The position numbers and the translations under genes were made by a program. From NCBI RefSeq assembly GCF_017916365.1, contig NZ_JAFMSU010000003.1, positions 1,116,001 to 1,180,000 on the forward strand: a DNA stretch of 64,000 nucleotides, read 5' to 3'. Position 1 is the first letter of the stretch, and the number at the start of each line of letters is the position of its first letter. The stretch comes from Rufibacter roseolus (GTDB lineage: Bacteria; Bacteroidota; Bacteroidia; Cytophagales; Hymenobacteraceae). Below, in pieces: positions 2,566 to 62,725 of this stretch. The notes under the pieces were generated by a model. It saw only the letters and a program-made list of their open reading frames with translations. It made no database searches and was not told the origin of the DNA.

Positions 2566-2605
2566 CAGTTTCAAGGCCGTTTTCTGTAAAACGGTCATAT
2601 AACAG
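2566..2605. repeat. 40-bp palindromic element, copy 1
   Basis: Directly after the stop of the propeller gene. The core CCGTTTTCTGTAAAACGG is a perfect hairpin. The right outer arm AACAG is also the base of the terminator stem at 2601-2644. Confidence 0.7.
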
Positions 2606-2644
2606 AGAGCCGCCAGCTTCTATTGAGGCTGGCGGCTCTCTGTT
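2601..2644 (+). terminator. Terminator after the propeller lipoprotein gene
   Basis: A 17-bp perfect stem (2601-2617 with 2628-2644), GC-rich in the middle (GCCGCCAGC), with a 10-base loop and ending in TGTTT. It follows the receptor-lipoprotein pair. Confidence 0.85.
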
Positions 2645-2669
2645 TATAGGGGCTAGAAATCCTTACTTG

Positions 2670-2708
2670 CGTTTAGAGCCGGTTTTCTGGGAAATGGGCC
2701 AAAAACAG
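2670..2708. repeat. 40-bp palindromic element, copy 2
   Basis: Outer arms CGTTT and AAAACAG, middle arms GAGCC and GGGCC, inner GTTTTC and GAAAT. It abuts the hairpin at 2711-2736, giving the minus-strand transcript its T-rich tail. Confidence 0.7.
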
Positions 2709-2710
2709 AA

Positions 2711-2736
2711 AAGCCTGCCTTTTTGAGGGCAGGCTT
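2711..2736 (-). terminator. Terminator for the small lipoprotein gene
   Basis: Stem AAGCCTGCC (2711-2719) with GGCAGGCTT (2728-2736). On the minus strand it is followed by TTCTGTTTTT, which comes from palindromic element copy 2. It sits 17 bp after the stop of the lipoprotein gene at 2754-3086. Confidence 0.8.
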
Positions 2737-2753
2737 TCCGGGAGGTATGTCTT

Positions 2754-3086
2754 TTAATTATTGTCTCGGTCTTGCTTCTGCTCAGCTGCGCCGCCTACAC
2801 CCTGGTTGCTTACCCCGGAGTTGCGCTCTCTTACCTTGTCTTCCTGCTGGTCGTAGATTTTCTGATTGGTAGAGTCGGTGGCATTGGTGTTCACGGGATC
2901 CTGGGTCTCATCAGACACGCCGGGCGCGTTGTTTTCAGTAGGGCTTTTGTCTTTGAAGTCACTTTCCTCTACGTTCACCTGGCCTTCGCTGGTGCCGGTG
3001 CTGCAGGAGGTGGTGCCCAAAAGTAATGCGCCTCCCAACAGAAAGGCACAGGAAACTTGTTTTATAGAAACGATTCGCTTTTTCAT
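2754..3086 (-). CDS. Small hydrophilic lipoprotein of unknown function
   Basis: 110 residues. An SPII signal peptide with lipobox GTTSC (Cys about 28) is followed by a low-complexity polar chain rich in Asn, Asp, Glu, Gln and Thr, with no predicted hydrophobic core and an ending QDRDNN. I do not recognise a family. It is probably membrane-anchored and unstructured. It is divergent from the 181-residue disordered protein at 3325, and the two share a 238-bp promoter region and a similar Asn/Asp/Gly-rich composition. This hints at a common, possibly stress-related role, which is inference only. Confidence 0.7.
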   Translation of the reverse strand: MKKRIVSIKQVSCAFLLGGALLLGTTSCSTGTSEGQVNVEESDFKDKSPTENNAPGVSDETQDPVNTNATDSTNQKIYDQQEDKVRERNSGVSNQGVGGAAEQKQDRDNN

Positions 3087-3324
3087 AGGTCTGGTTCAAT
3101 AGGTGACGTTTTCCGGGCTCGGCTAAAAACCTTCAGGCCCACACTTGAGGATAGTACGCGCATGACTGTATTTGAGTTAGCCCGCAGGCGCCTTTCCGGT
3201 ATTATTTGCCATCGGGCCCGGTCTGGCTAATCTTAACTAATCCGTCTCCGTACAACAGTACACGCCAGGGTATCCTGGCAGAATCATTTGTTTAAGTTTC
3301 ACCTCAAATAAAGGAGAAAGAACC

Positions 3325-3870: not shown

Positions 3871-3909
3871 TCCTTCTCTTGATTTCATGACACAAGAAGG
3901 GGCAGCAGG

Positions 3910-3948
3910 CGTTTCAAGCCTGTTTTCCGCAAAAGACCCGGGAAAACG
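3910..3948. repeat. 40-bp palindromic element, copy 3
   Basis: Arms CGTTTC and GAAAACG with inner TGTTTTCCGCAAAAGA. Its right half is merged into the terminator at 3931-3961. Confidence 0.65.
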
Positions 3949-3961
3949 CCCCGGGTCTTTT
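3931..3961 (+). terminator. Terminator after the disordered-protein gene
   Basis: Perfect 12-bp stem AAAAGACCCGGG / CCCGGGTCTTTT around AAAACGC, followed by GTTTT. It is A-tailed on the left as well, so it could work in both directions. Confidence 0.85.
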
Positions 3962-4067
3962 GTTTTAGGCATCTGGGGAAGTTACGTTTGGGCAGAAAAC
4001 CAGCTTTGCCGTATCTTAGCGGAAGCATCTGCCTGGGCAGGCTCCAACCATTTTTTTCTAGCGTACC

Positions 4068-4400: not shown

Positions 4401-4532
4401 AGGAGTCCTGAGTTCTGAGTCTTGGGTTCTGAGTTGTGGCAGGTGGATTACACTCTTTTAGCGTTTTCTTTGTTACCAGGGAGAATCATTAGCAATCAGC
4501 ACATTTTCTAATTAGCACATTACCTTAGCACC

Positions 4533-7365: not shown

Positions 7366-7377
7366 TATGCCTGTATA

Positions 7378-7415
7378 AGTTTTCGGCCTGTTTTCACCAA
7401 ATGGGCCCCAAAACG
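7378..7415. repeat. 40-bp palindromic element, copy 5
   Basis: AGTTTTC-GGCC left, GGCCCC-AAAACG right, inner TGTTTTCACCAAAT. The right arm AAACG is the foot of the terminator at 7411. Confidence 0.7.
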
Positions 7416-7458
7416 AAGAAGCTCCCTTATCTGCCTTAAGAGGGGAGCTTCTTCGTTT
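7411..7458 (+). terminator. Terminator after second Csp gene
   Basis: 16-bp stem from AAACGAAGAAGCTCCC (7411-7426) and its complement (7443-7458), then TAT. Long and stable; its foot is shared with the palindromic element. Confidence 0.85.
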
Positions 7459-8767: not shown

Positions 8768-8993
8768 AACCATTATCTCCTGCACTTTCTTCCAACGGAA
8801 CCATGAATGAACGTCAACCTACTCCACCCAGGAGGGGAGTATCAGATAAAGTAGACCTGTCACTACACGCAAAAGCAGCTGAAAAAAATAATTACTCTCA
8901 AAAGGGTCAGGGTTGGGTTTCTCACGCGCTATGGTTCCTGTTTTCGACCTACTTTTTAGTAAACCCGCCAAAAACAACCATTCCTTAAAATTA

Positions 8994-9050: not shown

Positions 9051-9086
9051 TCATAGAAATTGAAACTGACGTTAAACCTTACCGAT

Positions 9087-11330
9087 ATGGCAACCCTTAC
9101 AAGTGAAAAAACCAAGCCTGCCATAAGGAACACCTTCCCTATAGATGGCATGAGCTGTGCCGCCTGCGCCGTGAGCGTGGAATCCATGCTGCAGGCCCAG
9201 CCCGGCGTGCAAAGTGCCGCCGTGAACTACGCCAATAAAACCGCCCTGGTAGAATACATCCCCGGCACCGATCTACATCTGCTGCAGAAAGCCATCCAGG
9301 ACATTGGCTATGACTTGTTGCTGGAGAAAGAGGAAGCCACCCAGGAAGCCCAACAGGCCCGCGAAGAGGAAGCCTACCGCCGTATCAAAACCAAAACCAT
9401 CTGGGCTGCGGCCTTGTCGCTGCCGGTGGCGGTCATTGGCATGTTCTTCCACCATATGCCCTACGGCAACTGGATCATGCTGGCCTTCACCCTGCCGGTG
9501 GTGTTCTGGTTCGGGCGCAATTTCTATGTGAACGCGTTCAAGCTGGCCCGCCACGGCAAAGCCAACATGGACACGCTGGTGGCGTTGAGTACCGGCATCG
9601 CGTTTCTGTTCAGTGCCTTCAACACCATTTATCCTGAGTTCTTCCTGTCCCGCGGGCTGGAGCCGCACGTGTACTATGAGGCCGCCACGGTCATCATCGC
9701 CTTTATTCTGATAGGGAAACTGCTGGAGGAAAGAGCCAAATCCCGCACCTCAGGGGCTATCAAGAAGCTGATGGGCTTGCAGCCGAAATCGGTGAAGGCG
9801 CTGCGCAACGGACAGGAAGTGGAACTGCCCATTGAACAAGTGCTGGTAGGCGATGTGTTGCTCATCCGGCCCGGCGAGAAGATTCCGGTGGATGGCCGGG
9901 TGGTGAGCGGTTCCTCGTTCCTGGACGAGAGCATGATCAGCGGCGAGCCCATTCCGGTGGAGAAAGCCGCCGGAGACCAGGTGTTCACGGGCACCATCAA
10001 CCAGAAGGGCAGTCTGCAGATCTCGGCGGAGAAAGTAGGCGCCGAGACGCTTTTGGCCCAGATCATCAAAATGGTGCAGGAAGCGCAGGGTTCCAAAGCA
10101 CCCGTGCAGAAACTCACCGACAAGGTGGCCGGCATCTTCGTGCCCATCGTCATCGGAATTGCGCTGCTCAGCTTCGCGGCCTGGTACTTAATGGGCGGCG
10201 ACAACAACGTGACGCACGCGCTGCTGGCTTTGATCACGGTGCTCATTATCGCCTGTCCGTGTGCGTTGGGGCTGGCCACGCCAACCGCCATCATGGTGGG
10301 CGTGGGACGTGGCGCCGAGAACGGAATCCTAATCAAAGACGCCGAGAGCCTGGAGACCGCCCATAAACTCACCGCCGTGGTGCTGGACAAAACCGGCACC
10401 ATCACCAAAGGCAAACCCGAAGTTACCGAGCTCATCTGGACTGCTCCCCAGGAAGCCCAGAACGAGTTGGCTTCGGTGCTGCTGACGTTGGAAAATCAAT
10501 CGGAGCACCCGCTGGCCGAGGCGGTTTCCAAATACCTCACGGAGCAAGGCGTGCAAGCCGCGACCTTGGAGCAGTTCGCTAGCGTGACCGGCCGGGGCGT
10601 ACAGGCGCGATACCAAGGGCAGACGTTCTGGCTAGGCAACGAGAAACTGATGCAGGAGAACGGCCTCCGTTTCTCGGCCGATTTGGAGAAAACCGCCCAA
10701 AAACTGAAATCCAAAGCTAAGACGGTGGTGTTCGCCGGAACGCAGGGCCAGGTGGTAGCGCTCATCGCCATTGCCGATGCCATCAAGGAAACCTCGGCGC
10801 AGGCTATAAAAGACATGCAGCACCTGGGCCTGAACGTCTACATGCTCACCGGCGACAACGCCCAAACCGCCGCCGCCGTGGCGCAACAGGTAGGTCTGCA
10901 ACACTTCAAAGCCGAGGTGATGCCCCAGGACAAAGCCGATTTCATCCAGGAACTGCAACGCCAGGGCCAGGTGGTGGGCATGGTGGGCGACGGCATCAAC
11001 GACTCACAGGCCTTGGCCCTGGCCGATGTAGGCATCGCCATGGGCCGCGGCACCGACATCGCCATGGACGTGGCCAAAATCACGCTTATGCACTCAGACC
11101 TGCGGGCCATTCCTAACGCCATCAAACTGAGTAAAGCCACGGTACGCACCATCCACCAGAACCTGTTCTGGGCGTTCATTTACAACGTGATCGGGATACC
11201 GGTGGCAGCGGGTCTGCTCTACCCCATCTGGGGCTTCCTGCTGGACCCCATGCTGGCGGGAGCGGCCATGGCCCTGAGCTCGGTTTCTGTGGTTACCAAC
11301 AGTTTGCGCCTTCGGTCGTTAACTTTGTAG
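9087..11330 (+). CDS. copA: Copper-exporting P1B-type ATPase CopA
   Basis: 747 residues from ATG 9087. The TTG at 9060 lies at the predicted transcription start and is rejected. Order: one HMA domain with GMSCAAC (about 20-85), four membrane helices, actuator domain with SGEP, the CPC motif [14 protein letters not shown] in TM6, phosphorylation site DKTGT, the SEHPLAEA nucleotide-binding His-Pro, GDGIND, then TM7-8. TM7 carries [14 protein letters not shown] and TM8 [11 protein letters not shown]; these Asn-Tyr and Met-Ser-Ser residues define the Cu(I)-selective P1B-1 class. It pumps Cu(I) from cytosol to periplasm. Next comes a small HMA protein that can deliver copper. Confidence 0.97.
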
Positions 11331-11744: not shown

Positions 11745-11782
11745 CAGCTTTAGGCTTCTTTTTCAGAAATCGGCTTTAAAAC
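11745..11782. repeat. 40-bp palindromic element, copy 6
   Basis: AGGCT-TC-TTTTTCAGAAAT-CGGCTTTAAAAC. Lies between the metal island terminator and the next gene. Confidence 0.6.
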
Positions 11783-11874
11783 ATGGAGGCATTGTTTGCC
11801 CAAACAGATAAGTAGTCAGATTTATGAATAAGTTTGCGGGCACATCGTTTACAGGTAACTTCCCCCCCATCGGC

Positions 11875-12417: not shown

Positions 12418-12454
12418 CCTCTCCTTTCTTCCAGGGTCCATTCCCTGTTTTTGT
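12386..12454 (+). terminator. Probable terminator overlapping the gene end
   Basis: AATGGACCCTG (12386-12396), inside the coding region, pairs with CAGGGTCCATT (12432-12442), followed by CCCTGTTTTTGTT. The loop is long (35 nt) and contains the stop codon, so efficiency is uncertain. Confidence 0.45.
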
Positions 12455-12485
12455 TGGGCTTTCCTGAAAACAGCCTCTAAATAGA
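12450..12485. repeat. 40-bp palindromic element, copy 7 (degenerate)
   Basis: TTGTTGGGCT-TTCCTGAAAACA-GCCTCTAAATAG keeps the inner and middle arms; the outer arms have decayed. Confidence 0.45.
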
Positions 12486-12728: not shown

Positions 12729-14288
12729 TTAAGAACTGCAGGAGAGCATGGAGCAACCGGCTTTCTGGCTGGCCCAGTCGGGGCGTTTGGCGAAGAGCTC
12801 GTCGTGGTGGCGGGAGTATGGGTCTTTCATGGCTTCCTGCAGTTTCAGGAAGAGCTTGTTCTCGCCGCGTTCCAGTTCTTCTATGGCTTGGTGCAGAAGG
12901 TAGTTCCTCAGGATGATTCTGGGGTTGGCTTTCCGCATGCGATCCTTTGCTTCTTCACGGGTGCCAGTGTTGGCTTTAAGGCGGGTGGCGTAATCCTGCA
13001 TCAGGGTGAACAGCGTGGCGCGCTCGCCTGCTTCAATTTCCCGGTAGAAGCTATCCTGGAAATGCGCGGTCACCTCGGCTTCGGTGCCTACCTCCTCTGG
13101 CAGGTCCATGAGCAACTGGAAGAGGATGGTCATGTCCAGGTTAAGGGTGTAGAGGGTATCGGTGAAGCGGGTGATGAGTTCCTGGTCGCCTTCTTTCACC
13201 TGGTCCAAGCCCAGTTTTTGGGCCATCATGGCGTAATACTTCTCGTGGAAGATGTCGCTGTAGGTTTCCAGCACGGCGACCAGTTCCTCGGTGCCCGGCA
13301 ACAGAGGCGCGATGGCGCTGGCCAGGCAACCCAGGTTCCAGTACGCAATGGAAGCCTGCTTCCCGAAAGCATAGCGGCGGCCCGGCAAATCGGTGGTGTT
13401 GGGGGTGAAATCGGGGTCGTAGTCGTCCAGGAACGAGAATGGACCATAGTCAATGGTGAGGCCCAGGATAGACATGTTGTCGGTGTTCATAACGCCGTGC
13501 ACAAAGCCTACGCGCATCCACTCCACCATGAGCGCAGCTGTTTTCTCCATGATTTCCTTAAACCAGGCCAGAATCCGGCCCTCTCCCTGTAAATGCGGAT
13601 AGTAGCGGTCAATGGTCCAGTCTACCAGTTTTTGGAGGTTCTCGTTCTCTCTTCTGGCGGCCGGCATCTCAAAGCTCCCGAAGCGCAGGAAACTAGGGGC
13701 TACCCGCATCACAATGGCACCGGGCTCAAAAGCAGGGTTGCCGTTGTAGAACATATCACGCAGGACCTGGTCGCCGGTAGACACCAGGCTCAGGGCGCGG
13801 GTAGTGGGCACACCCAAATAGTGCATAGCCTCGCTCATAAGGTATTCCCGCACCGAGGACCGCAATACGGCCCGTCCATCGGCCCGGCGGGAATAGGGCG
13901 TGAGGCCTGCGCCTTTCAGCTGAAGTTCCCAGGATTTCCCGTCTGGTGCCACCCACTCGCCCAGCGTAATAGCCCGACCATCGCCCAACTGTCCGGCCCA
14001 GTTCCCGAACTGGTGTCCGGCGTAACAGGCAGCGTACGGGTACATGGAAGGCGCTACGTGGTTTCCACCCAGAATGTCGATGTCCTTCTGATCAGTGGGT
14101 TTCTCAATGCCCAGTTCCTGCGCCAATTCTTCTGACCAGGCCAGTAACTCCACTTTCCTGACCGGGGTGGGCAAGGCTTTGCTGTACAGGACGCCCGGTG
14201 TCTGGCGCGGTTTCACGTTGCCGCTGTCATCACCGTCAAAGGCCTGAACAAACTCATTTTTATATTCTTTTTCGCTTAAAGACTGCAT
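12729..14288 (-). CDS. selO: Protein adenylyltransferase SelO (YdiU)
   Basis: 519 residues, the usual length. A pseudokinase fold that transfers AMP from ATP to Ser, Thr or Tyr of target proteins (known from E. coli and human SelO; role in oxidative stress). Visible: GAGLTPYSRRADGRAVLRSSVREYL (nucleotide loop), HGVMNTDN and IDYGPF with the metal-binding Asn and Asp. The C-terminus is GCSMLSCSS: the Cys before the final SS stands where human SelO has selenocysteine, and can form the regulatory disulfide. Single gene, read leftward, ending 24 bp from the inverted repeat. 14289-14500 upstream has no other gene. Confidence 0.95.
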   Translation of the reverse strand: MQSLSEKEYKNEFVQAFDGDDSGNVKPRQTPGVLYSKALPTPVRKVELLAWSEELAQELGIEKPTDQKDIDILGGNHVAPSMYPYAACYAGHQFGNWAGQLGDGRAITLGEWVAPDGKSWELQLKGAGLTPYSRRADGRAVLRSSVREYLMSEAMHYLGVPTTRALSLVSTGDQVLRDMFYNGNPAFEPGAIVMRVAPSFLRFGSFEMPAARRENENLQKLVDWTIDRYYPHLQGEGRILAWFKEIMEKTAALMVEWMRVGFVHGVMNTDNMSILGLTIDYGPFSFLDDYDPDFTPNTTDLPGRRYAFGKQASIAYWNLGCLASAIAPLLPGTEELVAVLETYSDIFHEKYYAMMAQKLGLDQVKEGDQELITRFTDTLYTLNLDMTILFQLLMDLPEEVGTEAEVTAHFQDSFYREIEAGERATLFTLMQDYATRLKANTGTREEAKDRMRKANPRIILRNYLLHQAIEELERGENKLFLKLQEAMKDPYSRHHDELFAKRPDWASQKAGCSMLSCSS

Positions 14289-16379: not shown

Positions 16380-16389
16380 AGAGCTAAAC

Positions 16390-16427
16390 TGATTTAAGCC
16401 TGTTTTCAGGAAATCGATTAGGAATCA
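16390..16427. repeat. 40-bp palindromic element, copy 8b
   Basis: TTTAAGCC-TGTTTTCAGGAAATCG. With copy 8a it can form an 18-bp hairpin across 23 bases and is the only candidate transcription end signal in this convergent gap. Confidence 0.65.
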
Positions 16428-16467
16428 GATGCACTTGTTTCTGAAGCCTTTCCCAGCAACTTTCATC

Positions 16468-19608: not shown

Positions 19609-19648
19609 TTGTTTTGGAGCCGTTTTCCGGAAATGGGCTTGGAAACAG
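19609..19648. repeat. 40-bp palindromic element, copy 10
   Basis: One of the best copies: TTGTTTTGGAGCC, inner GTTTTCCGGAAAT, then GGGCTTGGAAACAG. Lies after the 3' end of the FAD-binding gene. Confidence 0.75.
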
Positions 19649-21390: not shown

Positions 21391-21430
21391 CCGTTTCTAG
21401 GCTGTTTTCCAGAAATCAACCCTGAAACGG
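21391..21430. repeat. 40-bp palindromic element, copy 11
   Basis: Outer arms CCGTTTC and GAAACGG pair exactly; inner GTTTTCCAGAAAT. Here it lies in a divergent promoter region rather than at a gene end. Confidence 0.75.
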
Positions 21431-24452: not shown

Positions 24453-24985
24453 TATACTTCCCGCTGCATGTACAAATCGCGCTGCACGTCCTCGCCCAGC
24501 ACAAAAGTCAACTCCCCCGATTCCCTAAAACCGTACTTCTGGTAAAACCGGATAGCCCGTTCGTTGCTTTCCCAGACGGTGAGCCACACCACGTCATGCC
24601 CCTTTTGCTGCGCGCGTTCTAAGCTCATTTTCATCAAAGTATCGCCTAAACCGCGGCCGGTCCAGGCCTGGAGCAGATAAAGCCGGCTGATCTGAAAAGG
24701 CTTCTTCCCGGATATTCCAGTTGGTGCCGCTGCGGTGTTCCACTTCACGTAGGCCACAGCTTCTCCCTCAGCCTCCACAATCAGGAACTCCGTGTCTGGA
24801 TCGGCTAATTCTGCTGCCTGGAGTTCCGGGGTGTACATGGTGGGCTTGAACGCGGCCATGTCCTCGGGACGGTTGTAGGCTGCAAAAGTCTCGTCAAAGG
24901 TGCGCCAGCCCAGATCGGCGAGTAAGCGGGCATCGGCGGCGGTTCCGCGTCTGAAGGTGAATTGGTTTGATGGTAAAGCGGGCAT
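24452..24985 (-). CDS. GNAT-family N-acetyltransferase
   Basis: 177 residues from ATG 24985. A TATCTTTG -7 box on the minus strand (25010-25017) puts the transcription start below the TTG at 25012, which excludes the longer frame. The acetyl-CoA loop is in ISRLYLLQAWTGRGLGDTLM and the C-terminal NERAIRFYQKYGFRESG is typical. Cytosolic. The acceptor is unknown; TFDETFAAYNRPEDMAAF resembles spermidine/amine-acting members. Its stop codon TAG uses the first base of the transposon arm. Confidence 0.88.
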   Translation of the reverse strand: MPALPSNQFTFRRGTAADARLLADLGWRTFDETFAAYNRPEDMAAFKPTMYTPELQAAELADPDTEFLIVEAEGEAVAYVKWNTAAAPTGISGKKPFQISRLYLLQAWTGRGLGDTLMKMSLERAQQKGHDVVWLTVWESNERAIRFYQKYGFRESGELTFVLGEDVQRDLYMQREV

Positions 24986-29169: not shown

Positions 29170-29212
29170 AAACAGAAAAGCCGCTCTACTAGATAGAGCG
29201 GCTTTTCTGTTT
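29170..29212 (+). terminator. Terminator after paoC
   Basis: 19-bp stem (29170-29188 with 29194-29212), loop CTAGA, then TT. Its right foot CTGTTTT is also the left arm of the palindromic element at 29207. Confidence 0.9.
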
Positions 29213-29246
29213 TGGGGCCGTTTTGGTGAAATCGGCGTGTAAACGG
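29207..29246. repeat. 40-bp palindromic element, copy 13
   Basis: CTGTTTTGGGGCC, inner GTTTTGGTGAAAT, GGCGTGTAAACGG: nearly a complete palindrome. Between converging paoC and a lipoprotein gene. Confidence 0.75.
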
Positions 29247-30542: not shown

Positions 30543-31904
30543 ATGAAATTTTTGCTGGCGCTTCTCACCGTTTTGGGCCTGTTTTTAACAAAAGCAGCCG
30601 CACAGGCTGTCTGGACTCCCAGCCCACCCCTTAGCTCCACTTTCGCCAACACCACCAGCATCGCAGTCAGTCCGGTGAATGACAGAATCTTCATTGGGTC
30701 AACCGATGGCGGTATCCTGAGTTCTGACGATGGCCGGACCTGGCAGCAGGTGTTACCGCACGCGGTGGTCAGTATCTTGGCGAAAGCAGACGGCACCCTG
30801 CTAGCCGGAGGAAAAGGAACTGTCTACCGCTCCGTGGACCAGGGCCAGAACTGGACTGCTCACCCGGTCAGCAGTGAATACTCCATCCGGAAGATTGTAT
30901 CAGACAGTGAGGGAAAACTGTATCTGGTTACCGGAGACCTGGGCGAAGACGGCAGCGAGGAGGAATTTTACGTGGGCGACGGCGTTTTCACCTCCACCGA
31001 TAATGGCCAAACCTGGACGAAGGACATCCAGGGTATGACCGGTACTTTGAGTGCCTGGAATCTGGCGGTGGGCAAGAACGATCAGGTGTACGTGGGCACC
31101 CATGACGGCAACGGGCGGCAAGACACCAGAATAGGTTTATACACGCGCCAGAAGGAGCAAACCACCTGGCAACCCGTTGACATCAAATTCCGGGAGATCG
31201 CCAACTTCAATGTGGCGTACCTGCACTCCATTGCGGTGGATGAAAACGATAGCCTCTATGTTGGCGTGGCCGGGAGCTCTGCTAGCCTGGCCGTGGAAGG
31301 AACCCTTAAATCCTCGGATGGCGGGCAGACGTGGCGGCCTTTGTACCTCACCCACAACACCACTTGGAATTACTGGCACCAACCCGTGGCCCACAGCTTT
31401 TACGTGAGCAAAGACCGCACGCTCTGGACCAGCAACTGGCCTAGCCGCGGCATTCTGGTCTCCAAAGATAAAGGAGAAACCTGGACCAGGGATATGCAAA
31501 ACATCGGGACTCCGCCTTATGCCTCCAGCCTGCAACACTTCCAGTTTGCCGAAAACAGCCAAAACAGGATTTTCGCCCTGCAGCCTTTTGACAATTATGT
31601 GTATTCCAAAATCTACCTGTTAGGCACAGATAAACCTTCTGAGAACTTCAGGTTCACGCTGGAGGCTTTCCCCAACCCGTTCCAGGATCAGTTGAGCCTT
31701 CGGTTTACCCTCTCTGCGCCTTCTGTGGTACAGATTCAGGTGGCAGATGCAAAAGGGGCATTGGTTTACAAACAAGCATATAAAGCCTCGGCCGGTGTCA
31801 ACGCCTTGCAATGGAAGTCACTTCATAATGCTCCCGGCGTCTACTATGTTTCCGTACAGACAGGCACGTATCAAAGCACCAAGAAAGTAGTCTTGTTACC
31901 CTAA
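30543..31904 (+). CDS. T9SS-exported beta-propeller protein (BNR/sialidase-like)
   Basis: 453 residues from ATG 30543 (an in-frame ATG at 30531 adds four residues). Signal peptide MKFLLALLTVLGLFLTKAAAQ. The body has Asp-box repeats (SSDDGRTW, STDNGQTW, SSDGGQTW, SKDKGETW), typical of propellers such as sialidases and Vps10-like proteins. The last 80 residues are a type A sorting domain for type IX secretion: FPNPFQDQLSLRFTLS and GVYYVSVQTGTYQSTKKVVL. So it is secreted or bound to the cell surface. No catalytic residues can be named. Copies of the palindromic repeat appear inside the signal-peptide codons and near 31541. Confidence 0.88.
   Translation: MKFLLALLTVLGLFLTKAAAQAVWTPSPPLSSTFANTTSIAVSPVNDRIFIGSTDGGILSSDDGRTWQQVLPHAVVSILAKADGTLLAGGKGTVYRSVDQGQNWTAHPVSSEYSIRKIVSDSEGKLYLVTGDLGEDGSEEEFYVGDGVFTSTDNGQTWTKDIQGMTGTLSAWNLAVGKNDQVYVGTHDGNGRQDTRIGLYTRQKEQTTWQPVDIKFREIANFNVAYLHSIAVDENDSLYVGVAGSSASLAVEGTLKSSDGGQTWRPLYLTHNTTWNYWHQPVAHSFYVSKDRTLWTSNWPSRGILVSKDKGETWTRDMQNIGTPPYASSLQHFQFAENSQNRIFALQPFDNYVYSKIYLLGTDKPSENFRFTLEAFPNPFQDQLSLRFTLSAPSVVQIQVADAKGALVYKQAYKASAGVNALQWKSLHNAPGVYYVSVQTGTYQSTKKVVLLP
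30568..30606. repeat. Palindromic element inside a coding region (signal peptide)
   Basis: CCGTTTTGGGCC, TGTTTTTAACAAAAGCA, GCCGCACAGG. It encodes the hydrophobic core of the signal peptide (LTVLGLFLTKAA). The right side is weaker than in intergenic copies, so coincidence is possible. Confidence 0.45.
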
Positions 31905-34050: not shown

Positions 34051-34140
34051 ACGGATTATAACACCAGGCTTGGCAAGAGAGTTTACCTTCTTGCTAAATA
34101 TACTGGTGTTTAAAGGCTACTTTACTAAAATAACGCAAAA

Positions 34141-34164
34141 ACGCCGCTTTTGGCAAAGCGGCGT
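34141..34164 (-). terminator. Terminator after the small lipoprotein gene
   Basis: Stem ACGCCGCTTT / AAAGCGGCGT with loop TGGC. The minus-strand side is followed by TTTTTG. It lies 36 bp after the 3' end of the 34201 gene, and may also insulate uvrB. Confidence 0.75.
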
Positions 34165-34955: not shown

Positions 34956-36608
34956 TTACTTGGCAAGGCGCCATCTGCCGCCTATACTAACCCCAAGCTG
35001 GTACGGATTGGCCTGTCTTTGAGCCTCCCGCAGCATAGGGCTGAGCGAGTAGGTGAATTCAGGTGCCAACAGTATACTCATCTTCTTGGTGACGTCATAG
35101 CCAACCCCAATGGAGGTAGTGGTTGCCCACTGTACCGTCCGGAAGGGGGAATCTTTGTCATTGAGGCCATATCTCACAGCCTCTACCTGGTCTGTTTCTG
35201 GCACAATGGTATTCTGCACCAGCAGGTTCATGTTCAGCCCGCCAGAGAAAAGGGCATACATTCTCTTCATGTTCAGCCGGTAAGCCAACCGCACAGGCAA
35301 ACCAACCTGTTGGTACCGGTACCTGGTGTTGTAGCGGTCTGTGCGGTCTACAGTGATGGCTCTGGCGGCCATTTCATTGTTGAAAGCGTTGGTCACCAAA
35401 GGTGCACTCTTGCCCGACGAGCTCCCCAGGTCAAACCCTACCGTGGATAACACCGACCCTCCCTGGTACACCAGGTAAGACTGCGTGGTGGTTGCCTCGT
35501 TCTGCGTGTACAAGACTCCGGTCTCCAGTTGCCATTTGTCATTGATCCGGTAACTGGCTCCCACCAGGGCCGCATAAGAATAGGTTGGGGTATAGCTGTG
35601 GTTGTATTCCTCTACCGCCTCCTTGTACTGCGCATATGCCTGGGCTTGTCCTACAGCCGGGCTGTTCATAGCAGAATTATCGCTTAGTTTTACCGGTGCG
35701 TAAGCATACTGAGGGCTATAGGCCATGGTCACGCTCCACTTGTAAACGTCACTTTCTTCGGCTTCATTGCCTTTTTTAGGCGGTGGGGTCTGGGCCAAGG
35801 CCGTCAAGGGGGCTTCCTTCTGAACCAAAATACTTCTCTCAGACGCTCCTTTAAGCGAATCCAAGCCTAACGGGAGTCCTTTAGAAAATGACAGATTATT
35901 TGTAACAGATCGGGGAAAAGCCTTGTTTTCCCCGCTGATTGGCTGGATGGTTTTGTCTGTAACCGGCCTTTCTGCCTCTGTTGTGATGGCTAATTCTACG
36001 GCAGGTTTACTTTCTTTCAGCGTTTCTACAGTGGCGGTATTTTCTTTAGGGTTTTGCTGCGCAAATGAAATGCTTAAAGCTGGCCGGTTCTCATTCAAAG
36101 CATAAGTTCTGCTATTAGAAGCAGCCCCAGTAGCATCTTCGTTTTGAGCCTGTTTCCCAGAAAACACCCTTGGAACGGAAACCAGAACTTCAGGCGTAAC
36201 GTGGCGTTCTGAAGCTTCGGCCATCTCAGGAGCTTCGGCTATCGCGGGGGCGGCATTTGCCGGAAGGTTCACATCGGCCGCAGGCCGGTTTGGCACAGAT
36301 GCCGCCGGAGCTTTCTGGCTACTTCTCTCCTGCCCGGAAGCAAGGGTATCCTGCTGGCCAACCAGAAGAGGGGAATCCTGCTGCCAAACAATGATACCCG
36401 CCGAGAGCAGGAGCAACAGCAGGGCCGCCGCCATGGAGCGGTACCATATCATCTGCTTCCTATACCGGTGCAGTTCCTGGTTCTCTATTTCGCGGTGCAC
36501 GTTTTCCCAGATTCTGGGTGGTGGAGCGCTTTCAGCTTCAGCAAAGCCATTCCGGAAGATGTCCTCCACAGACTGGCCTTTCTCTTTATCAGCCGGTGAC
36601 TTTTTCAT
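34956..36608 (-). CDS. Membrane partner of ECF sigma factor with C-terminal outer-membrane-type barrel
   Basis: 550 residues. N-terminus (VEDIFRNGFAEAESAPPPRIWENV) resembles anti-sigma cytoplasmic motifs, then a membrane span near 58-75 (MAAALLLLLLSAGIIVWQQ). A long low-complexity Ala/Glu/Pro-rich stretch follows (about 90-290). The last 240 residues look like a PF13568-type outer-membrane beta-barrel (YSPQYAYAPVKLS, YSLSPMLREAQRQANPYQLGVSIGGRW). This layout, span plus linker plus barrel-like domain, suggests a periplasm-spanning sensor. It overlaps the sigma gene by 20 bp, so it is its anti-sigma or sensor. A palindromic element is read through at residues 143-156. Confidence 0.82.
   Translation of the reverse strand: MKKSPADKEKGQSVEDIFRNGFAEAESAPPPRIWENVHREIENQELHRYRKQMIWYRSMAAALLLLLLSAGIIVWQQDSPLLVGQQDTLASGQERSSQKAPAASVPNRPAADVNLPANAAPAIAEAPEMAEASERHVTPEVLVSVPRVFSGKQAQNEDATGAASNSRTYALNENRPALSISFAQQNPKENTATVETLKESKPAVELAITTEAERPVTDKTIQPISGENKAFPRSVTNNLSFSKGLPLGLDSLKGASERSILVQKEAPLTALAQTPPPKKGNEAEESDVYKWSVTMAYSPQYAYAPVKLSDNSAMNSPAVGQAQAYAQYKEAVEEYNHSYTPTYSYAALVGASYRINDKWQLETGVLYTQNEATTTQSYLVYQGGSVLSTVGFDLGSSSGKSAPLVTNAFNNEMAARAITVDRTDRYNTRYRYQQVGLPVRLAYRLNMKRMYALFSGGLNMNLLVQNTIVPETDQVEAVRYGLNDKDSPFRTVQWATTTSIGVGYDVTKKMSILLAPEFTYSLSPMLREAQRQANPYQLGVSIGGRWRLAK
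36140..36178. repeat. Palindromic element inside the sigma-partner gene
   Basis: CGTTTTGAGCC, inner TGTTTCCCAGAAAACA, CCCTTGGAACGG. Read on the minus strand it encodes SVPRVFSGKQAQ in the low-complexity linker. Confidence 0.65.
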
Positions 36609-37285: not shown

Positions 37286-37334
37286 AAAACAGGGTATATC
37301 CCAGCCTAAGGCACAGCGTTGCCTACCCTGTTTT
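37286..37334 (-). terminator. Terminator after aroE
   Basis: AAAACAGGGTA (37286-37296) pairs with TACCCTGTTTT (37324-37334); an inner stem-loop GGCAACGCTGTGCC forms on the minus strand. The foot CTGTTTT is shared with the palindromic element that starts at 37327. Confidence 0.7.
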
Positions 37335-37366
37335 AGGGCCGTTTTACAGAAAAGAAGTTAAAAACG
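37327..37366. repeat. 40-bp palindromic element, copy 15
   Basis: CCTGTTTTAGGGCC, inner GTTTTACAGAAAAGA, AGTTAAAAACG. It fills all the space between the aroE stop and the terminator. Confidence 0.75.
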
Positions 37367-37369
37367 AAA

Positions 37370-42062: not shown

Positions 42063-42815
42063 TTATAGCGTGGTATTTAGGAGGGGCAATTTCATCGCTT
42101 CCTGGAACAAAGGTTCATTTACCACCCGCTCCAGTACCCTAATGTGTTTCTCAGAGTGTGTATCTGTACCCAGAAACTCGACCGCTTTCCTTTTGATGAG
42201 TTGCCGGGCTACCTCTTTGGCCTGTTTAGAATAATACCCCGTCAATGAATTGGTGTTAATCTGAAACAGCACGCCAGTCTCCCTCAAGGAAAGCAGGGCT
42301 TCCATTCTCCCATAAAAGTAAGTGTACCGCTCAGGATGTGCCAAGACTGGGGTATAGCCTGCGGCCTGGGTTGCAAAAATCACCTGCCGCAGATGGGAGG
42401 GCTCATTCATATAGGAAGTCTCAACCAGAAGGAACTTACGGTCCCCTCCGAAAGTTAGGAGCTCCTCTCCCTTTTCAAGTTTAGCGGAAAACCATTCATC
42501 CAGGTAATATTCTGCCGCACAGGAAAGAGCCATCTCAAAGCCCCGAGCATTTGCTGCCTCCTGAAGTTCTTGTAGCTTAGCCCTTATAGTTTCTGGGGTA
42601 TTTTTATAAAAATCGCCCATAATGTGGGGCGTCATGCAAAGCTTCTTGAAGCCCAAAGCGGAAAGGCCTTCAAGAAGCTGCAAAGAATCGTCTAAGGTTG
42701 TAGCACCGTCATCTAACCCTGGGAGTAGATGAGAGTGCATATCGGCAAACAGATCAGCAAAAGAAGAGGTAGCAGTCTCACTCTTACCCCAGAGCTTACG
42801 AAGGTTACCCCACAT
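42063..42815 (-). CDS. Protein-tyrosine phosphatase of the CpsB/YwqE type
   Basis: 250 residues, PHP metal-dependent fold. DMHSHLLPGLDDGATTLDDSL is the signature with metal-binding His, and VLAHPERYTYF and FLGTDTHS provide further ligands. It removes phosphate from the tyrosine tail of the kinase encoded 4 bp upstream; this pair controls chain length and export in capsule systems. Cytosolic. Confidence 0.94.
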   Translation of the reverse strand: MWGNLRKLWGKSETATSSFADLFADMHSHLLPGLDDGATTLDDSLQLLEGLSALGFKKLCMTPHIMGDFYKNTPETIRAKLQELQEAANARGFEMALSCAAEYYLDEWFSAKLEKGEELLTFGGDRKFLLVETSYMNEPSHLRQVIFATQAAGYTPVLAHPERYTYFYGRMEALLSLRETGVLFQINTNSLTGYYSKQAKEVARQLIKRKAVEFLGTDTHSEKHIRVLERVVNEPLFQEAMKLPLLNTTL

Positions 42816-59095: not shown

Positions 59096-59108
59096 TTTGA
59101 ATCAATGA

Positions 59109-62102
59109 TTAAAATTCTACAGATATACCGCCAGTGATGGTTCTTGGATTAGGATAGGCGTTCAGGTTCTGGCCTGTATTCTCTGGATCATCGCCCCGGT
59201 AATTTGTGAAGGTAGCCAAGTTCAAGCCCTGCACGAACATGCTTATGGACGGGATACGGATGCGTTCAGAAAGTGCTGTTGGCACTTTATAGCTTAGGGT
59301 TACTTGCTTCAAACGGATGTAAGATCCTTCCTCAATAAATCTGTTTGAGAAATCAGAATGATAGAATCCGCCTGGCTCAAGTTCACCTTCGTACGGACGA
59401 GGTACCCAAGTCATATGACCGGGTCTAATCCATCTGCTTAACTGTGAAGTAGCCTGGTTTTCATTTGCAGATCCTGCCTGCTCCAATACCTGACCGGTTT
59501 GGATGAACCCGTCTCTGCCATACTCATACTGAAATAACACATCCAATGACAAACCTTTGTAAGACAAGGTTGTTCCGGCACCACCAAAGGCATCTGCGTT
59601 CTGGTCGCCTACAAAGTCCTGGTCTGCAGTAGTTGGGCTATAGGTAATGTTTCCGTTTCTGTCATAGAACATAGGACGGCCATCTGCTGGGTTAACCCCT
59701 GCCCATTTGTAAGTGTACATCAGGTAAAGCGGTTTGCCTACTACATAGGTGTTTCCTATACGGTCTCCCACGTTCAAAGAGAGGAGCTTGTTTTCAGTTA
59801 AACCAATATTGAAAGTAGTAGACCATCTGAAATCACCTGCATCTACGTTGATAGTAGTGATCTCAAAATCAATCCCCTTTTGCTCTATTTCACCGCCATT
59901 TTCTGTGATACCAGCCGGAAACGCATCAGATGGTAACTGTCTTGACAAGATCAGGTCAGTGGTGTTTTTTCTGTAGATATCGAATGAACCAGAGACTCTG
60001 TTGTTAGCCACCGAGAAGTCTAACCCTAAGTTCACCTGCTTGGAGCTTTCCCATCCAAAATCAGCATTCGCCAATTGGGTAGGACGAATTCCTGGCTGAT
60101 CATTGTACTGGCCGCCGTTGCCAAACAGACCAAGGGAGGTGAAATCACCAGTAGGCTGAGAACCTACTACCCCGTAACTCGCTCTCAGTTTCAAGTCATT
60201 TACGAAGGCAAGATCTTGCATGAATTCCTCACCTGAAATACGCCATCCGGCAGATAGTCCGTAGAACAGACCCCATTTGTTGTTAGCACCGAATCTGGAA
60301 GACCCGTCATAACGCAGGGTGGCAGAAGCCAGGTACTTTGACTTATAGTCGTATTTGAAATTACCAAAGAAGCTGGCCACTTTGTAACCTCCAAAGACAG
60401 AACCAACAGAAGTAGGCGTGGCTGCGCTGCTGAGCAATCTAAACAAAGGACTGGCAAAACCAGATCCACCAGAGCTCAACGTAGTGTTGTCTACTTGACG
60501 ATACTCAAAACCTCCCAAAGCGCCCACATTGTGTACCTCAGCAAATTTCTTGTTGAAGTTTAAGGTATGGCTGGTAGTCCAGTTTATTCTTCTGTCAAAA
60601 GACTCATTGGCGGTACCCGTTGGAGCATAGATAGGCAGAGAAGTTGGTCTGTAGTTTCGGTTCTTGGCATCTGAGAAATCTATCCCTGCAAAAGCCCGGA
60701 AACGCAAACCAGGTACAATGTCATAATTGATGGCCATATTACTTACGGTCTGAGCAATGTCGGTCATCCTGTCCTCTTCATACAGAGACTGCACAATGTT
60801 CAGGTTGTAAGCGTTCCGGATGTTTTTATTGAAGGTTCCATCTTCGTTATAAACACTGTTATAAGGCGGGATGAACAAAGCACCTGTGAACGGAGTGTTG
60901 GTAAAGAACCCAACGTTAGTTGTAGGACCTTTAGATTTTGAACCAGTCAGACCTAAAGTGGTTTCTAAGGAAAACTTATTTGACAGTTTGTGGTCAATGT
61001 TTGCTCTTACTGTACCACGGGTAAAATCAGAATTGATGATAGTACCCTCTGTTTTGTTAAAAGAGCCCGAAATAAAGAATCTGGTCTTTTCATCACCACC
61101 ACTGGCAGAAAGATCATACTGCTGTACTTTGCCTTTTTGGGAGATGGCGTCATACCAATCCGTAGAAGGAATAGAAGTTGGCACTCCACCAGGGAAAACA
61201 GCTGCAGCAGCTGCGGCTAGACCTTCCTCACGTGTGAAACCTCTACGCAGATATTGATTAACGTAAGCTTCTTGTTTCAAAGCATAATACCATGAAGCAT
61301 CCAAGACCTCATAAGGGTTATACATTTCATTAACCCCATACTGGCCAGAAACCTTAATTCGGGTCTTGCCAGACTTTCCTCTTTTAGTGGTAATGATCAC
61401 AACCCCATTAGCTGCCTGAGAACCGTAGATTGACGCACTTGCTGCATCTTTCAACACTTCAATGGTTTCAATATCTGCCGGGTTAATGGAAGAAAGCACG
61501 TTAGCGGAAGTCTGGGAAGAAGCACCACCTGGGCTTATTTGAACCCCATCTACTACGTACAAAGGTTGTGTGGAACCGTTGATAGTAGCAGCACCTCTAA
61601 TGTTAACGCTAATTCCACCACCAGGCTGACCACTTTGAGAAGTAACCCGCACACCAGCTAAGCGGCCTTGCATGGCTCTGTCAAAGGTTTGAGTTGGCAA
61701 ACTTTCAATAGCCGCACCTTTAATAGAAGTGATAGCACCAGTTACTTCTCTTTTTTCCTGCGGAGCACCGTAGCCGGTTACTACCACTTCAGAGATTGCA
61801 CGGGAGTCAGTGGCTAAACGGGCGTTTACCGTTGAAGATGCCCCAAGCACAATTTCCTGGCTTGAATACCCAATAAAGGAGAACACCAGGGTACCGCCTG
61901 AACTGGGCACATTAATAGTGTAGGAACCGTTCACATCCGTTGGAGAGGCTGTGCTGCTCCCTTTGAGTTGAACTGTTACGCCAGGCATTCCCTCACCTGT
62001 TTGCGCGTCAGTCACTCGTCCTGTTACAGTTCGTGTTTGTGCCCACGCTTGGGTAAGAAGCGTCAGCATAAACACTAAACTAAAGAGTAGTGTTTTCTTC
62101 AT
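59109..62102 (-). CDS. SusC/RagA-family TonB-linked outer-membrane protein
   Basis: 997 residues. Signal peptide to WAQ (about 22); carboxypeptidase-D-like N-domain (VTGRVTDAQTGEGMPGVTVQLKG); TonB box region SEVVVTGYG; plug (VNIRGAATINGSTQPLYVVDGVQI); 22-strand barrel ending in ITGGISVEF. It imports substrate captured by SusD, driven by TonB-ExbB-ExbD. First gene of the cassette, with an exact consensus promoter upstream. Confidence 0.96.
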   Translation of the reverse strand: MKKTLLFSLVFMLTLLTQAWAQTRTVTGRVTDAQTGEGMPGVTVQLKGSSTASPTDVNGSYTINVPSSGGTLVFSFIGYSSQEIVLGASSTVNARLATDSRAISEVVVTGYGAPQEKREVTGAITSIKGAAIESLPTQTFDRAMQGRLAGVRVTSQSGQPGGGISVNIRGAATINGSTQPLYVVDGVQISPGGASSQTSANVLSSINPADIETIEVLKDAASASIYGSQAANGVVIITTKRGKSGKTRIKVSGQYGVNEMYNPYEVLDASWYYALKQEAYVNQYLRRGFTREEGLAAAAAAVFPGGVPTSIPSTDWYDAISQKGKVQQYDLSASGGDEKTRFFISGSFNKTEGTIINSDFTRGTVRANIDHKLSNKFSLETTLGLTGSKSKGPTTNVGFFTNTPFTGALFIPPYNSVYNEDGTFNKNIRNAYNLNIVQSLYEEDRMTDIAQTVSNMAINYDIVPGLRFRAFAGIDFSDAKNRNYRPTSLPIYAPTGTANESFDRRINWTTSHTLNFNKKFAEVHNVGALGGFEYRQVDNTTLSSGGSGFASPLFRLLSSAATPTSVGSVFGGYKVASFFGNFKYDYKSKYLASATLRYDGSSRFGANNKWGLFYGLSAGWRISGEEFMQDLAFVNDLKLRASYGVVGSQPTGDFTSLGLFGNGGQYNDQPGIRPTQLANADFGWESSKQVNLGLDFSVANNRVSGSFDIYRKNTTDLILSRQLPSDAFPAGITENGGEIEQKGIDFEITTINVDAGDFRWSTTFNIGLTENKLLSLNVGDRIGNTYVVGKPLYLMYTYKWAGVNPADGRPMFYDRNGNITYSPTTADQDFVGDQNADAFGGAGTTLSYKGLSLDVLFQYEYGRDGFIQTGQVLEQAGSANENQATSQLSRWIRPGHMTWVPRPYEGELEPGGFYHSDFSNRFIEEGSYIRLKQVTLSYKVPTALSERIRIPSISMFVQGLNLATFTNYRGDDPENTGQNLNAYPNPRTITGGISVEF

Positions 62103-62146
62103 GTGTTTTTTGGTTTGTTTGTAGAGATATGATTTTGTTTGATAAC

Positions 62147-62177
62147 CAAATATATACTTATTAGATACTTTAACAAA
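62147..62177 (-). promoter_or_regulatory. Exact consensus promoter of susC cassette
   Basis: TTTG (62174-62177), exactly 19 bp, then TATATTTG (62147-62154) on the minus strand: a textbook Bacteroidota sigma-A promoter. Start near 62140, leader about 38 nt. No ECF-type or hybrid operator is evident. Confidence 0.8.
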
Positions 62178-62686
62178 TTCTTAACATTCTATTTTTCACT
62201 AGTTTCCACCCATTTAGCAGCTACTTAACCCTGTTTAAGCAAAGGAATAATCAGGGCTTTTCTTGATTTTATAAATTCGCCTGCTTTGCACCTACAACTT
62301 TTAAATAATATCATTTAGACGCCAGATATCTTTAACAAAGTCTTAATCTATTTTTCTCTGAGTTACTATAAATAATTTTCAAATATTTTTTTTCTGAAAG
62401 GTCATATGGAAGGGGCTCAAAAGCACCCCTTAATAAATTATGCGTAAGCCTGCAAATAGATCTTTAAGTTTTGGAGTGCCCTATTTCTCACACTATATAT
62501 AATAGTGTCCGGCTGGGGCTCTCTAGTATTTTAGAAGTAAAACCCCAGAAGTTTTTATGAGCAAACCCTGATCACAGCGCGGCTTAGGCATAAACATTGA
62601 CTCGTTCAGACGGCCAAGGCCCTGCCAAAACAGACAGAGCCTTTATACAGAAAGCCTTCCTTACCTATGCATAACCTTTAAAATGG

Positions 62687-62725
62687 GTGTTTAAGGGCCG
62701 TTTTGCTGGAAATTGAGTAAAATAG
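62687..62725. repeat. 40-bp palindromic element, copy 19
   Basis: GTGTTTAAGGGCC, GTTTTGCTGGAAATT, GAGTAAAATAG. In the middle of the 1.1-kb gene-free stretch 62178-63154, which is AT-rich and shows no other feature I can name. Confidence 0.6.

What the first reader, a model, noticed from the sequence alone, without database searches (positions are those of the whole stretch)
2566..62725. An unnamed ~40-bp palindromic repeat about once every 3 kb
Seen: about 22 copies share one plan. Outer arms CNGTTTT and AAAACNG, middle arms GGCC and GGCY, inner arms GTTTTC and GAAAN, with 2-4 central bases. Good copies: 2670, 3910, 7378, 19609, 21391, 25069, 29207, 31922, 37327, 52515. The arms pair but individual bases vary, which suggests selection for a structure rather than recent spread. 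It has no orientation, being palindromic, and sits in both convergent and same-strand gaps. I know of no named Bacteroidota family like this. It could be a 3'-end mRNA element, a nucleoid or recombination site, or a REP-type element moved by a RAYT.
Basis: partly seen in the sequence, partly recalled or inferred. Interest (0 to 1): 0.82.

Follow-up and report, generated by a model that had tools for sequence, protein, structure and literature searches.

The report
Genus-wide four-box palindromic DNA site
Bacteria of the genus Rufibacter carry many hundreds to thousands of copies of a 40-letter symmetric DNA sign, mostly between genes and often at gene ends, that stays in the same places as species diverge while its spelling drifts species by species, as if an unknown protein reads it across the whole chromosome.

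Summary
The repeat is real and commoner than reported: 35 copies of at least 20 bits in the window (0 reversed), 422 against 1 in 864 kb of this 5.5-Mb genome, roughly 3,000 by extrapolation. Plan: CYGTTTT-N4-CYGTTTT-N4-AAAACRG-N4-AAAACRG, box centres 11 bp apart, so on one helix face. It occurs in 16 of 16 genomes of the genus and near control level in 104 others of the family. It keeps its places: 98 of 110 orthologous gaps occupied; one copy inside a fast-evolving protein linker is in 16 of 16 species. Each species has its own dialect. The two arms vary almost independently; the pairing excess sits in near-perfect palindromes (45 of 456 copies, 7.7 expected), mostly at 3' ends. G-U is not favoured over A-C on the transcribed strand. 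So most copies are not RNA or hairpin elements but look like sites read in double-stranded DNA by a two-fold-symmetric protein. RAYT transposases do not explain it, and sampled secondary contigs hold few copies. Best reading: a chromosomal site of gene ends with an unknown binder; a DNA-uptake-type sequence is the main rival.

The parts
2566..2605 (.). four-box element, convergent gap
   Evidence: 30.9 bits
2669..2708 (.). four-box element, convergent gap, next to a terminator-like hairpin
   Evidence: 35.3 bits; hairpin 2708-2739
3909..3948 (.). four-box element, same-strand gap
   Evidence: 29.6 bits
4279..4318 (.). weaker element inside a predicted gene
   Evidence: 23.6 bits
5673..5712 (.). 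four-box element, same-strand gap
   Evidence: 27.9 bits
6904..6943 (.). four-box element; gap occupied in 9 of 9 syntenic genomes, own included
7377..7416 (.). four-box element 11 bp after a stop codon; gap occupied in 9 of 9 syntenic genomes
8938..8977 (.). four-box element; gap occupied in 5 of 10 syntenic genomes
10667..10706 (.). element inside the gene 9060-11330
   Evidence: 35.5 bits; orthologues of this copy not examined
11745..11784 (.). four-box element; gap occupied in 6 of 9 syntenic genomes
12445..12484 (.). four-box element, convergent gap; 6 of 6 syntenic genomes
13538..13577 (.). weaker element inside a predicted gene
   Evidence: 26.0 bits
16342..16381 (.). four-box element, convergent gap (first of a pair); gap occupied in 3 of 4 syntenic genomes
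16389..16428 (.). four-box element, convergent gap (second of a pair)
   Evidence: 26.0 bits
19228..19267 (.). four-box element 1 bp after a predicted stop codon; 11 of 11 syntenic genomes
19609..19648 (.). four-box element, same-strand gap; 2 of 2 syntenic genomes
21391..21430 (.). four-box element, divergent gap; 3 of 3 syntenic genomes
24614..24653 (.). weak match inside a conserved gene, possibly coding constraint
   Evidence: 22.6 bits
25070..25109 (.). four-box element, divergent gap; 16 of 16 genomes
29207..29246 (.). four-box element, convergent gap, its first box following a terminator-like hairpin as its T-tract (by eye); 9 of 9 syntenic genomes
30568..30607 (.). weak match near the start of a predicted gene
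   Evidence: 21.7 bits
31922..31961 (.). four-box element forming the top of a longer terminator-like hairpin; 5 of 5 syntenic genomes
34106..34144 (.). 39-bp variant, same-strand gap; 12 of 15 syntenic genomes
36139..36178 (.). element inside the variable linker coding region of the gene 34956-36608 (minus strand); same frame in 16 of 16 genomes
37328..37367 (.). four-box element 2 bp after a predicted stop codon; 16 of 16 genomes
42587..42626 (.). weaker element, same-strand gap
   Evidence: 22.3 bits
46421..46460 (.). weaker element, divergent gap, overlapping a predicted start
   Evidence: 24.8 bits
49203..49242 (.). four-box element, convergent gap
   Evidence: 33.9 bits
50735..50774 (.). 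four-box element, divergent gap
   Evidence: 32.3 bits
52514..52553 (.). weaker element, convergent gap, overlapping a predicted stop
   Evidence: 23.8 bits
54987..55026 (.). element inside a predicted gene near its start
   Evidence: 32.4 bits
55078..55117 (.). four-box element, same-strand gap
   Evidence: 28.3 bits
56730..56769 (.). weaker element inside a predicted gene near its start
   Evidence: 24.9 bits
59885..59924 (.). weak match inside a predicted gene
   Evidence: 21.0 bits
62687..62726 (.). weaker element, same-strand gap
   Evidence: 22.9 bits

Best explanation
The element is a binding site in double-stranded DNA for an unidentified two-fold-symmetric protein assembly that reads four 7-bp boxes at 11-bp steps on one face of the helix (two pointing right, two pointing left). 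The binder would be as widespread in Rufibacter as the site. The sites occur about once per intergenic gap, preferentially just behind stop codons and between convergent genes, and are kept in place there. The most likely role is chromosome organisation or a boundary between transcription units: a bound protein that marks or insulates gene ends. A minority have become near-perfect palindromes at 3' ends (45 of 456 copies have 15 or more of 18 pairs where 7.7 are expected), and several of these look like bidirectional terminators. Shown: family, geometry, positional conservation, genus restriction in the sampled genomes, dialects, near-independence of the arms in the bulk. Inferred: that a protein binds, that it is symmetric, and that the role is architectural or boundary. 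The first part (a protein-read double-stranded site under long-term constraint) I hold at about 0.85; the gene-end role at about 0.5.
For: Geometry from raw spacing counts: GTTT-N7-GTTT 157 against 19-48 at other spacings; GTTT..AAAC peaks only at N5/6, N16/17 and N27/28; no AAAC..GTTT peak. Arms nearly independent: arm-swap z -0.8 to 1.6 in 7 of 8 genomes; column 11 is C or G about equally in each arm, with no significant pairing preference over all copies (z 1.5 and 0.8). In the window genome covariation is confined to convergent (combined z 6.1) and same-strand gaps (3.2) and absent for divergent plus in-gene copies (-1.4). On the transcribed strand of 223 copies in same-strand gaps, G-U and A-C mismatches are equal, 337 against 345 (my sums over the table). 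Conservation in place: the core T columns (5, 6, 16-18) are 0.79-0.89 identical between orthologues, against 0.54-0.69 in flanks and 0.48 in the element's own most variable columns; gaps 0.02-0.05 against 0.04-0.08. 98 of 110 orthologous gaps occupied, against 5 of 47 (gaps of 45 bp or more) where the window genome has none. Linker site in 16 of 16. Gene-end bias: gaps of 60-150 bp hold one in 36 of 43 convergent and 39 of 107 same-strand cases, divergent gaps under 150 bp in 0 of 17; 80 element-to-stop distances are 0-12 bp, that is 21-37 per 4 bp against 6-17 per 4 bp further out (convergent copies count towards both stops). Copies per convergent gap grow only from 22 in 23 gaps of 100-150 bp to 18 in 11 gaps above 500 bp. 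Dialects: in G013 the inner box reads CA or CG in 119 of 138 arms where GT is commonest in each of the other 15 genomes, while its outer box stays GT in 133 of 138.
Against: No binding protein was identified. The sites carry 31.4 bits where 10.7 would suffice to find them; this is more than a plain binding site needs and suits a drive or spreading process. Species-wide dialect shifts over many sites are hard for ordinary selection. 41 of 102 divergent gaps and one protein-coding linker also hold sites, which a pure gene-end role does not require. Genes were called with my own simple caller, so stop-codon distances carry some error. A covariation signal exists in the window genome (up to z 6.1 at columns 7/34), which I attribute to terminator-like copies. 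Other genomes also have more copies with 17-18 pairs than swapping gives (G001 11 against 4.0, G005 14 against 3.6, G010 5 against 0.6; G013 9 against 7.3 and G014 8 against 4.9 less so). The divergent copies alone show single-column values of 2.7 and 3.4 as well as -2.7 (n 45).
Confidence: 0.5

Rival explanations
1. A DNA uptake sequence: natural transformation prefers DNA carrying the site, so copies accumulate and are kept wherever tolerated; a change in the receptor shifts the whole genome to a new dialect.
For: Resembles uptake sequences in copy number, species dialects, intergenic preference and association with terminators (passages of PMC3630211). Positions are stable. Information excess of 31.4 against 10.7 bits. 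Few copies on sampled secondary contigs. Neighbours closer than 300 bp are somewhat rarer than in a gap-preserving null (0.141 against 0.172, sd 0.009).
Against: Overall spacing is no more regular than that null (CV 1.03 against 1.01), stretches over 5 kb without a copy are not rarer (0.062 against 0.070, sd 0.008), and in-gene copies are not unusually far from others (median 774 against 683 bp, p 0.42). The four-box dyad suits a symmetric protein better than a pilin-type receptor (inference). Near-full occupancy of short convergent gaps and absence from short divergent gaps point to gene ends. One search for such sequences in Bacteroidetes gave no paper.
Confidence: 0.25
2. A REP-type mobile repeat moved by a RAYT or another transposase.
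For: Size, palindromic form, copy number and 3'-end preference resemble REPs (abstract of PMC3733652). Three Y1_Tnp genes lie in the genome.
Against: PF01797 matches occur in 48 of 59 genomes across family and order, and genome G007 has 948 copies by pattern with 0 PF01797 matches. The three Y1_Tnp loci hold 5 copies in 9.7 kb, about the genome average. Sampled larger secondary contigs have few copies. Positions are old and shared. No GTAG or CGTC tag in the consensus. Most copies do not keep paired arms.
Confidence: 0.1
3. Bidirectional intrinsic terminators or another 3'-end RNA hairpin.
For: 27 copies with 16 or more of 18 pairs lie only at 3' ends (12 convergent, 15 same-strand, 0 divergent, 0 in genes), some with A- and T-tracts. 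Enriched in convergent gaps. Covariation in convergent gaps, combined z 6.1.
Against: The bulk does not conserve pairing; no G-U preference; copies in divergent gaps and a coding linker; the right end is AAAACRG, not a T-tract; Rfam 0 hits in the window.
Confidence: 0.1
4. A decaying ancestral repeat with no present function.
For: Loose in some genomes (29-32 bits in G000, G009, G015 against 54-56 in G013 and G014, from copies of 20 bits or more).
Against: T columns 5, 6, 16 and 17 stay at 94-97% while columns 7-9, 14 and 15 are at 34-65% in the same genome (the scan itself favours copies with intact T columns). Orthologous columns differ in identity within the element. Homogeneous dialects in other species.
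Confidence: 0.05

Closest known systems
DNA uptake sequences of Neisseriaceae (DUS) and Pasteurellaceae (USS)
   Same: Around a thousand or more copies, restricted to one group, species dialects, use near terminators (DUS: passages of PMC3630211); shared positions (recalled).
   Different: DUS are short words of 10-12 bases. This is a 40-bp dyad of four boxes, mostly outside genes, with no known role in uptake and no clear regularity of spacing.
REP elements and BIMEs with RAYT transposases
   Same: Short palindromes in high copy at 3' ends and in convergent gaps (abstract of PMC3733652).
   Different: No GTAG/CGTC tag, no link to Y1_Tnp genes, fixed geometry, little arm covariation, few copies on sampled secondary contigs, stable positions across a genus.
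Binding sites of OmpR/PhoB-type regulators (Pho box, PhoP box; recalled)
   Same: Boxes in direct repeat at 11-bp steps with CTGT- or GTTT-like wording.
   Different: Here two such repeats face each other, in thousands of copies, at gene ends rather than promoters; no regulator was tied to it.
Nucleoid-protein sites such as Noc-binding sites, parS and matS (recalled)
   Same: Palindromic sites scattered over one chromosome for a dedicated protein.
   Different: Those number tens, not thousands; spacing and sequence differ (TTT-N6-AAA in parS, TTT-N4-AAA here).

Membership tests
REP/RAYT elements | unpaired GTAG or CGTC tetranucleotide at one end | tested here: not met
   Consensus ends CYG..CRG symmetrically; flanks carry at most 0.08 bits per column beyond the ends
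REP/RAYT elements | linked to or flanking RAYT genes | tested here: not met
   5 copies in 9.7 kb around three Y1_Tnp genes, about background; the Y1_Tnp gene in L009 is flanked by a different palindrome (by eye); G007 has no PF01797 match
REP/RAYT elements | imperfect palindrome able to form a hairpin | tested here: inconclusive
   Consensus is palindromic, but pairing is not conserved beyond column preferences in 7 of 8 genomes
REP/RAYT elements | location downstream of genes and in convergent gaps | tested here: met
DNA uptake sequences | hundreds to thousands of copies of one word in the genome | tested here: met
   337-2010 by pattern (up to 2 mismatches) in 16 of 16 genus genomes
DNA uptake sequences | species dialects | tested here: met
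DNA uptake sequences | raises DNA uptake or transformation | not testable with these tools
   needs an experiment
DNA uptake sequences | frequent inside genes and evenly spread | tested here: inconclusive
   114 of 506 hits in predicted genes, 0.16 per kb against 1.5-4.6 per kb in gaps; no even spacing overall, but close pairs slightly rare
Intrinsic terminators | stable hairpin followed by a T-tract | tested here: not met
   Only 45 of 456 copies have 15 or more of 18 pairs (7.7 expected); met by eye for some of these
Described RNA families (Rfam 15) | match at the gathering score | tested here: not met
   0 matches in the window

The most novel reading that the evidence does not exclude
Rufibacter has a bacterial counterpart of an insulator system: a genus-specific oligomeric protein bound at thousands of four-box sites, about one per transcription-unit boundary, whose recognition has drifted between species with the whole set of sites following it, even where the site lies in a coding sequence and dictates the peptide.
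Probability: 0.35. Interest if true: 0.93.

Novelty: new variant of a known kind. Interest (0 to 1): 0.82.

Why it matters
A chromosome-wide sequence-specific site with about 3,000 copies, conservation in place across a genus and species dialects did not turn up for this group in my six library searches (open-licence papers only, listings seen). It defines a concrete biochemical question, namely which protein reads the four boxes, and offers 16 species with different dialects as natural mutants. Either main answer is informative. A boundary protein would be a new layer of bacterial chromosome organisation; an uptake sequence would be, to my knowledge, the first in Bacteroidota.

Tried and rejected
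RNA or hairpin reading: tested by pairing statistics, arm swapping, G-U against A-C, and Rfam. Rejected for the bulk, kept for the near-perfect palindromes.

RAYT/REP: tested by a family search in 59 genomes (own included), copies near Y1_Tnp genes, and secondary contigs. Disfavoured.

Same skeleton with other letters in sister genera: the bare TTT/AAA skeleton in 120 family genomes is near control level in the 104 outside the genus. Rejected for that one spacing; other spacings were not searched there.

Even spacing as a sign of uptake drive: not found overall; neighbours under 300 bp are slightly rarer than the null.

Terminator-like hairpins beside elements: a crude scan gave no clear rule (convergent gaps of 60-500 bp with an element, 34 of 65 as they stand and 22 of 65 with the element masked, against 8 of 12 without). 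Not used.

ParB/Noc site: spacing differs by 2 bp from the recalled sequences. An exact-pattern scan of the viral collection gave one contig with one copy; not followed.

Orthologues of in-gene copies other than 36139-36178 were not examined one by one.

Papers: PMC3733652 seen as abstract, outline and three passages; PMC3630211 as passages; all other papers as search listings with abstract beginnings only. PhoB/PhoP boxes, parS, Noc and matS sites and the Pasteurellaceae USS are recalled.

Full report
What is there. The window is G000:C3:1116001-1180000 of a 5.5-Mb genome. The genus is Rufibacter: in ten of its fifteen genus mates the orthologue of one window protein has the same coordinates as in named records, nine Rufibacter and Sabulibacter ruber. 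A symmetric weight matrix trained on 864 kb of the genome (the window plus 40 stretches of 20 kb) finds 508 copies at 14 bits or more against 11 in the reversed sequence, and 422 at 20 bits or more against 1 reversed and 0 in a Markov simulation. In the window: 39 and 35, against 1 and 0 reversed. Scaling 508 minus 11 in 864 kb to 5.5 Mb gives about 3,200 copies; this is an extrapolation.

Anatomy. Spacing counts that need no matrix show the plan. GTTT to GTTT is enriched only at an 11-bp step. GTTT to AAAC is enriched at inner, middle and outer distances, each with a variant one base shorter, and AAAC to GTTT is not enriched. The element is therefore four 7-bp boxes, two forward and two reversed, with centres 11 bp apart over 40 bp, and a minority of 39-bp forms. 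In 361 intergenic copies of the window genome the T columns 5, 6, 16 and 17 are 94-97% T, while other columns go down to 34% for the commonest base within the arms.

Where it sits. With a simple gene caller of my own, 506 copies fall as follows: 241 in same-strand gaps (89.8 kb), 101 in convergent gaps (22.2 kb), 50 in divergent gaps (33.2 kb) and 114 inside predicted genes (about 717 kb). In-gene copies score lower (median 21.6 against 31.2 bits), so some may be chance or coding constraint. Gaps of 60-150 bp hold a copy in 36 of 43 convergent and 39 of 107 same-strand cases; divergent gaps shorter than 150 bp in 0 of 17. Eighty element-to-stop distances are 0-12 bp, about twice the level further out. 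Copies per gap rise little with gap length.

Not a hairpin in most copies. If pairing were selected, the arms of one copy should match each other better than arms drawn from different copies. In 7 of 8 genomes the difference is not significant (z -0.8 to 1.6; 37-85 copies each; six of seven differences positive but small), and in the window genome it is significant but small (10.97 against 10.50 of 18 pairs, z 7.0, 393 copies). In the window genome the pair-count histogram shows no excess below 14 pairs over the swapped one, and a clear one at 15 or more, 45 observed against 7.7 expected, out of 456. Copies with 17-18 pairs also exceed swapping in G001 (11 against 4.0), G005 (14 against 3.6) and G010 (5 against 0.6). 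Twenty-seven copies with 16 or more pairs lie in convergent (12) or same-strand gaps (15), none in divergent gaps or genes, and several extend into flanks with T-tracts. Column covariation follows the same line: convergent z 6.1, same-strand 3.2, divergent plus in-gene -1.4, divergent alone 1.2 with 45 copies. On the transcribed strand of same-strand gaps G-U and A-C mismatches are equally common, 337 and 345 (my sums from the table). So the symmetry is mainly that of a double-stranded site, and a minority of copies have a second life as terminator-like palindromes (inference from position and flanks).

Age and constraint. The pattern occurs in 16 of 16 genus genomes (337-2010 copies with up to 2 mismatches) and at 0-2 in the other 43 relatives searched. 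The bare skeleton is above control in 16 of 16 genus genomes (70-2705 against 10-27) and near control level in the 104 other family genomes. In a sample of 395 genomes of the phylum only the own genome has more than one match (455, up to 1 mismatch), and two others have one each. In syntenic gaps where the window genome has a copy, 98 of 110 orthologous gaps have one; where it has none, 5 of 47 gaps of 45 bp or more (genes of window 5-41 kb). Two gaps are occupied in 16 of 16 genomes. Between orthologues the core T columns are 0.79-0.89 identical, flanks 0.54-0.69 and the most variable columns 0.48, with fewer gaps inside the element (55 genome pairs, not independent). One copy lies in a coding linker that is otherwise hardly alignable. 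It is present in the same frame in 16 of 16 species, and the peptide follows the DNA, including the G013 dialect (that DNA and not peptide is the constrained level is inference).

Dialects. Species differ in wording. In G013 the inner box has CA or CG at two positions in 119 of 138 arms where GT is commonest in each other genome; the outer box did not change (133 of 138 GT). In G005 column 7 is A in 67%. G014 is nearly uniform (56 bits) and G009 loose (29 bits); four genomes rest on only 10-14 copies. The inner and outer boxes thus evolve separately, which suggests two different reading domains or subunits per arm (inference).

Mobility. PF01797 matches occur in 48 of 59 genomes, and G007 has none with 948 copies. 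Y1_Tnp loci are not enriched for the element (5 copies in 9.7 kb), and the Y1_Tnp gene in L009 has a different palindrome on both sides (by eye). Sampled secondary contigs (60 kb of G000:C4, 80 kb of G009:C2, 100 kb of G013:C2; plasmid status not proven) have 0.1-0.7 copies per 10 kb at 20 bits or more, against 2.8 and 5.0 in samples of the G009 and G013 main contigs. Small contigs of 7.3 and 7.5 kb carry 5.5 and 4.0 per 10 kb; the end of the first resembles a 5S rRNA gene by eye, though Rfam and ARAGORN report nothing. In the closest pair aligned (window and R. hautae) all 11 copies of the window stretch have a counterpart; in R. hautae two further copies lack one, neither as a clean 40-bp insertion.

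How it most likely works. A symmetric protein assembly reads the four boxes and stays bound near gene ends. Supported steps: site geometry, double-stranded reading, constraint in place. Inferred steps: protein identity, oligomeric state, boundary function. Against it stand the information excess (31.4 bits present, 10.7 needed) and the dialects, which are marks of uptake sequences (passages of PMC3630211). Against the uptake reading stand the lack of even spacing, the gene-end pattern and the dyad form.

Novelty. Searches for Rufibacter or Hymenobacteraceae with palindrome or repeat terms, Cytophagales with palindromic repeats, genus-specific or nucleoid terms in Bacteroidetes, and uptake sequences in Bacteroidetes gave nothing on point in the listings. 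The library holds only open-licence papers, so absence from print is not proven.

Noticed in passing
L054:1659-1683, L059:2316-2340, L116 (5 copies), L009:1186-1210, L035:7451-7475: A second, unrelated dispersed repeat (word GACGCTCGCAGGTCCTCCGGACGCT) occurs in 8 of 139 loci; with up to 5 substitutions there are 10 copies in 864 kb of the window genome.
   Followed up: partly
L009:1290-1330 and 1990-2045: The Y1_Tnp (RAYT-like) gene in L009 is flanked on both sides by an inverted palindrome around GTGCGTAGAG..CTCTACGCAC, which may be its own REP (by eye).
   Followed up: no
L123:1273-1312: One strong copy of the 40-bp element (45 bits) lies on a 39-kb contig of the viral collection; it could be a prophage flank or a phage of Rufibacter.
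   Followed up: no
window:36139-36178: A DNA site inside a coding linker seems to dictate the only recognisable peptide (about SVSxPFSxKQ) of an otherwise unalignable region in 16 species.
   Followed up: yes
L124-L128 (G013:C2): The few copies on the 155-kb secondary contig of G013 mostly lack the G013 dialect of the inner box, as if acquired from other members of the genus (read by eye from seven sites).
   Followed up: no
window:42886-42934: Short tandem array with 6/18/24-bp periods (CCGTAA-type) inside a predicted gene.
   Followed up: no
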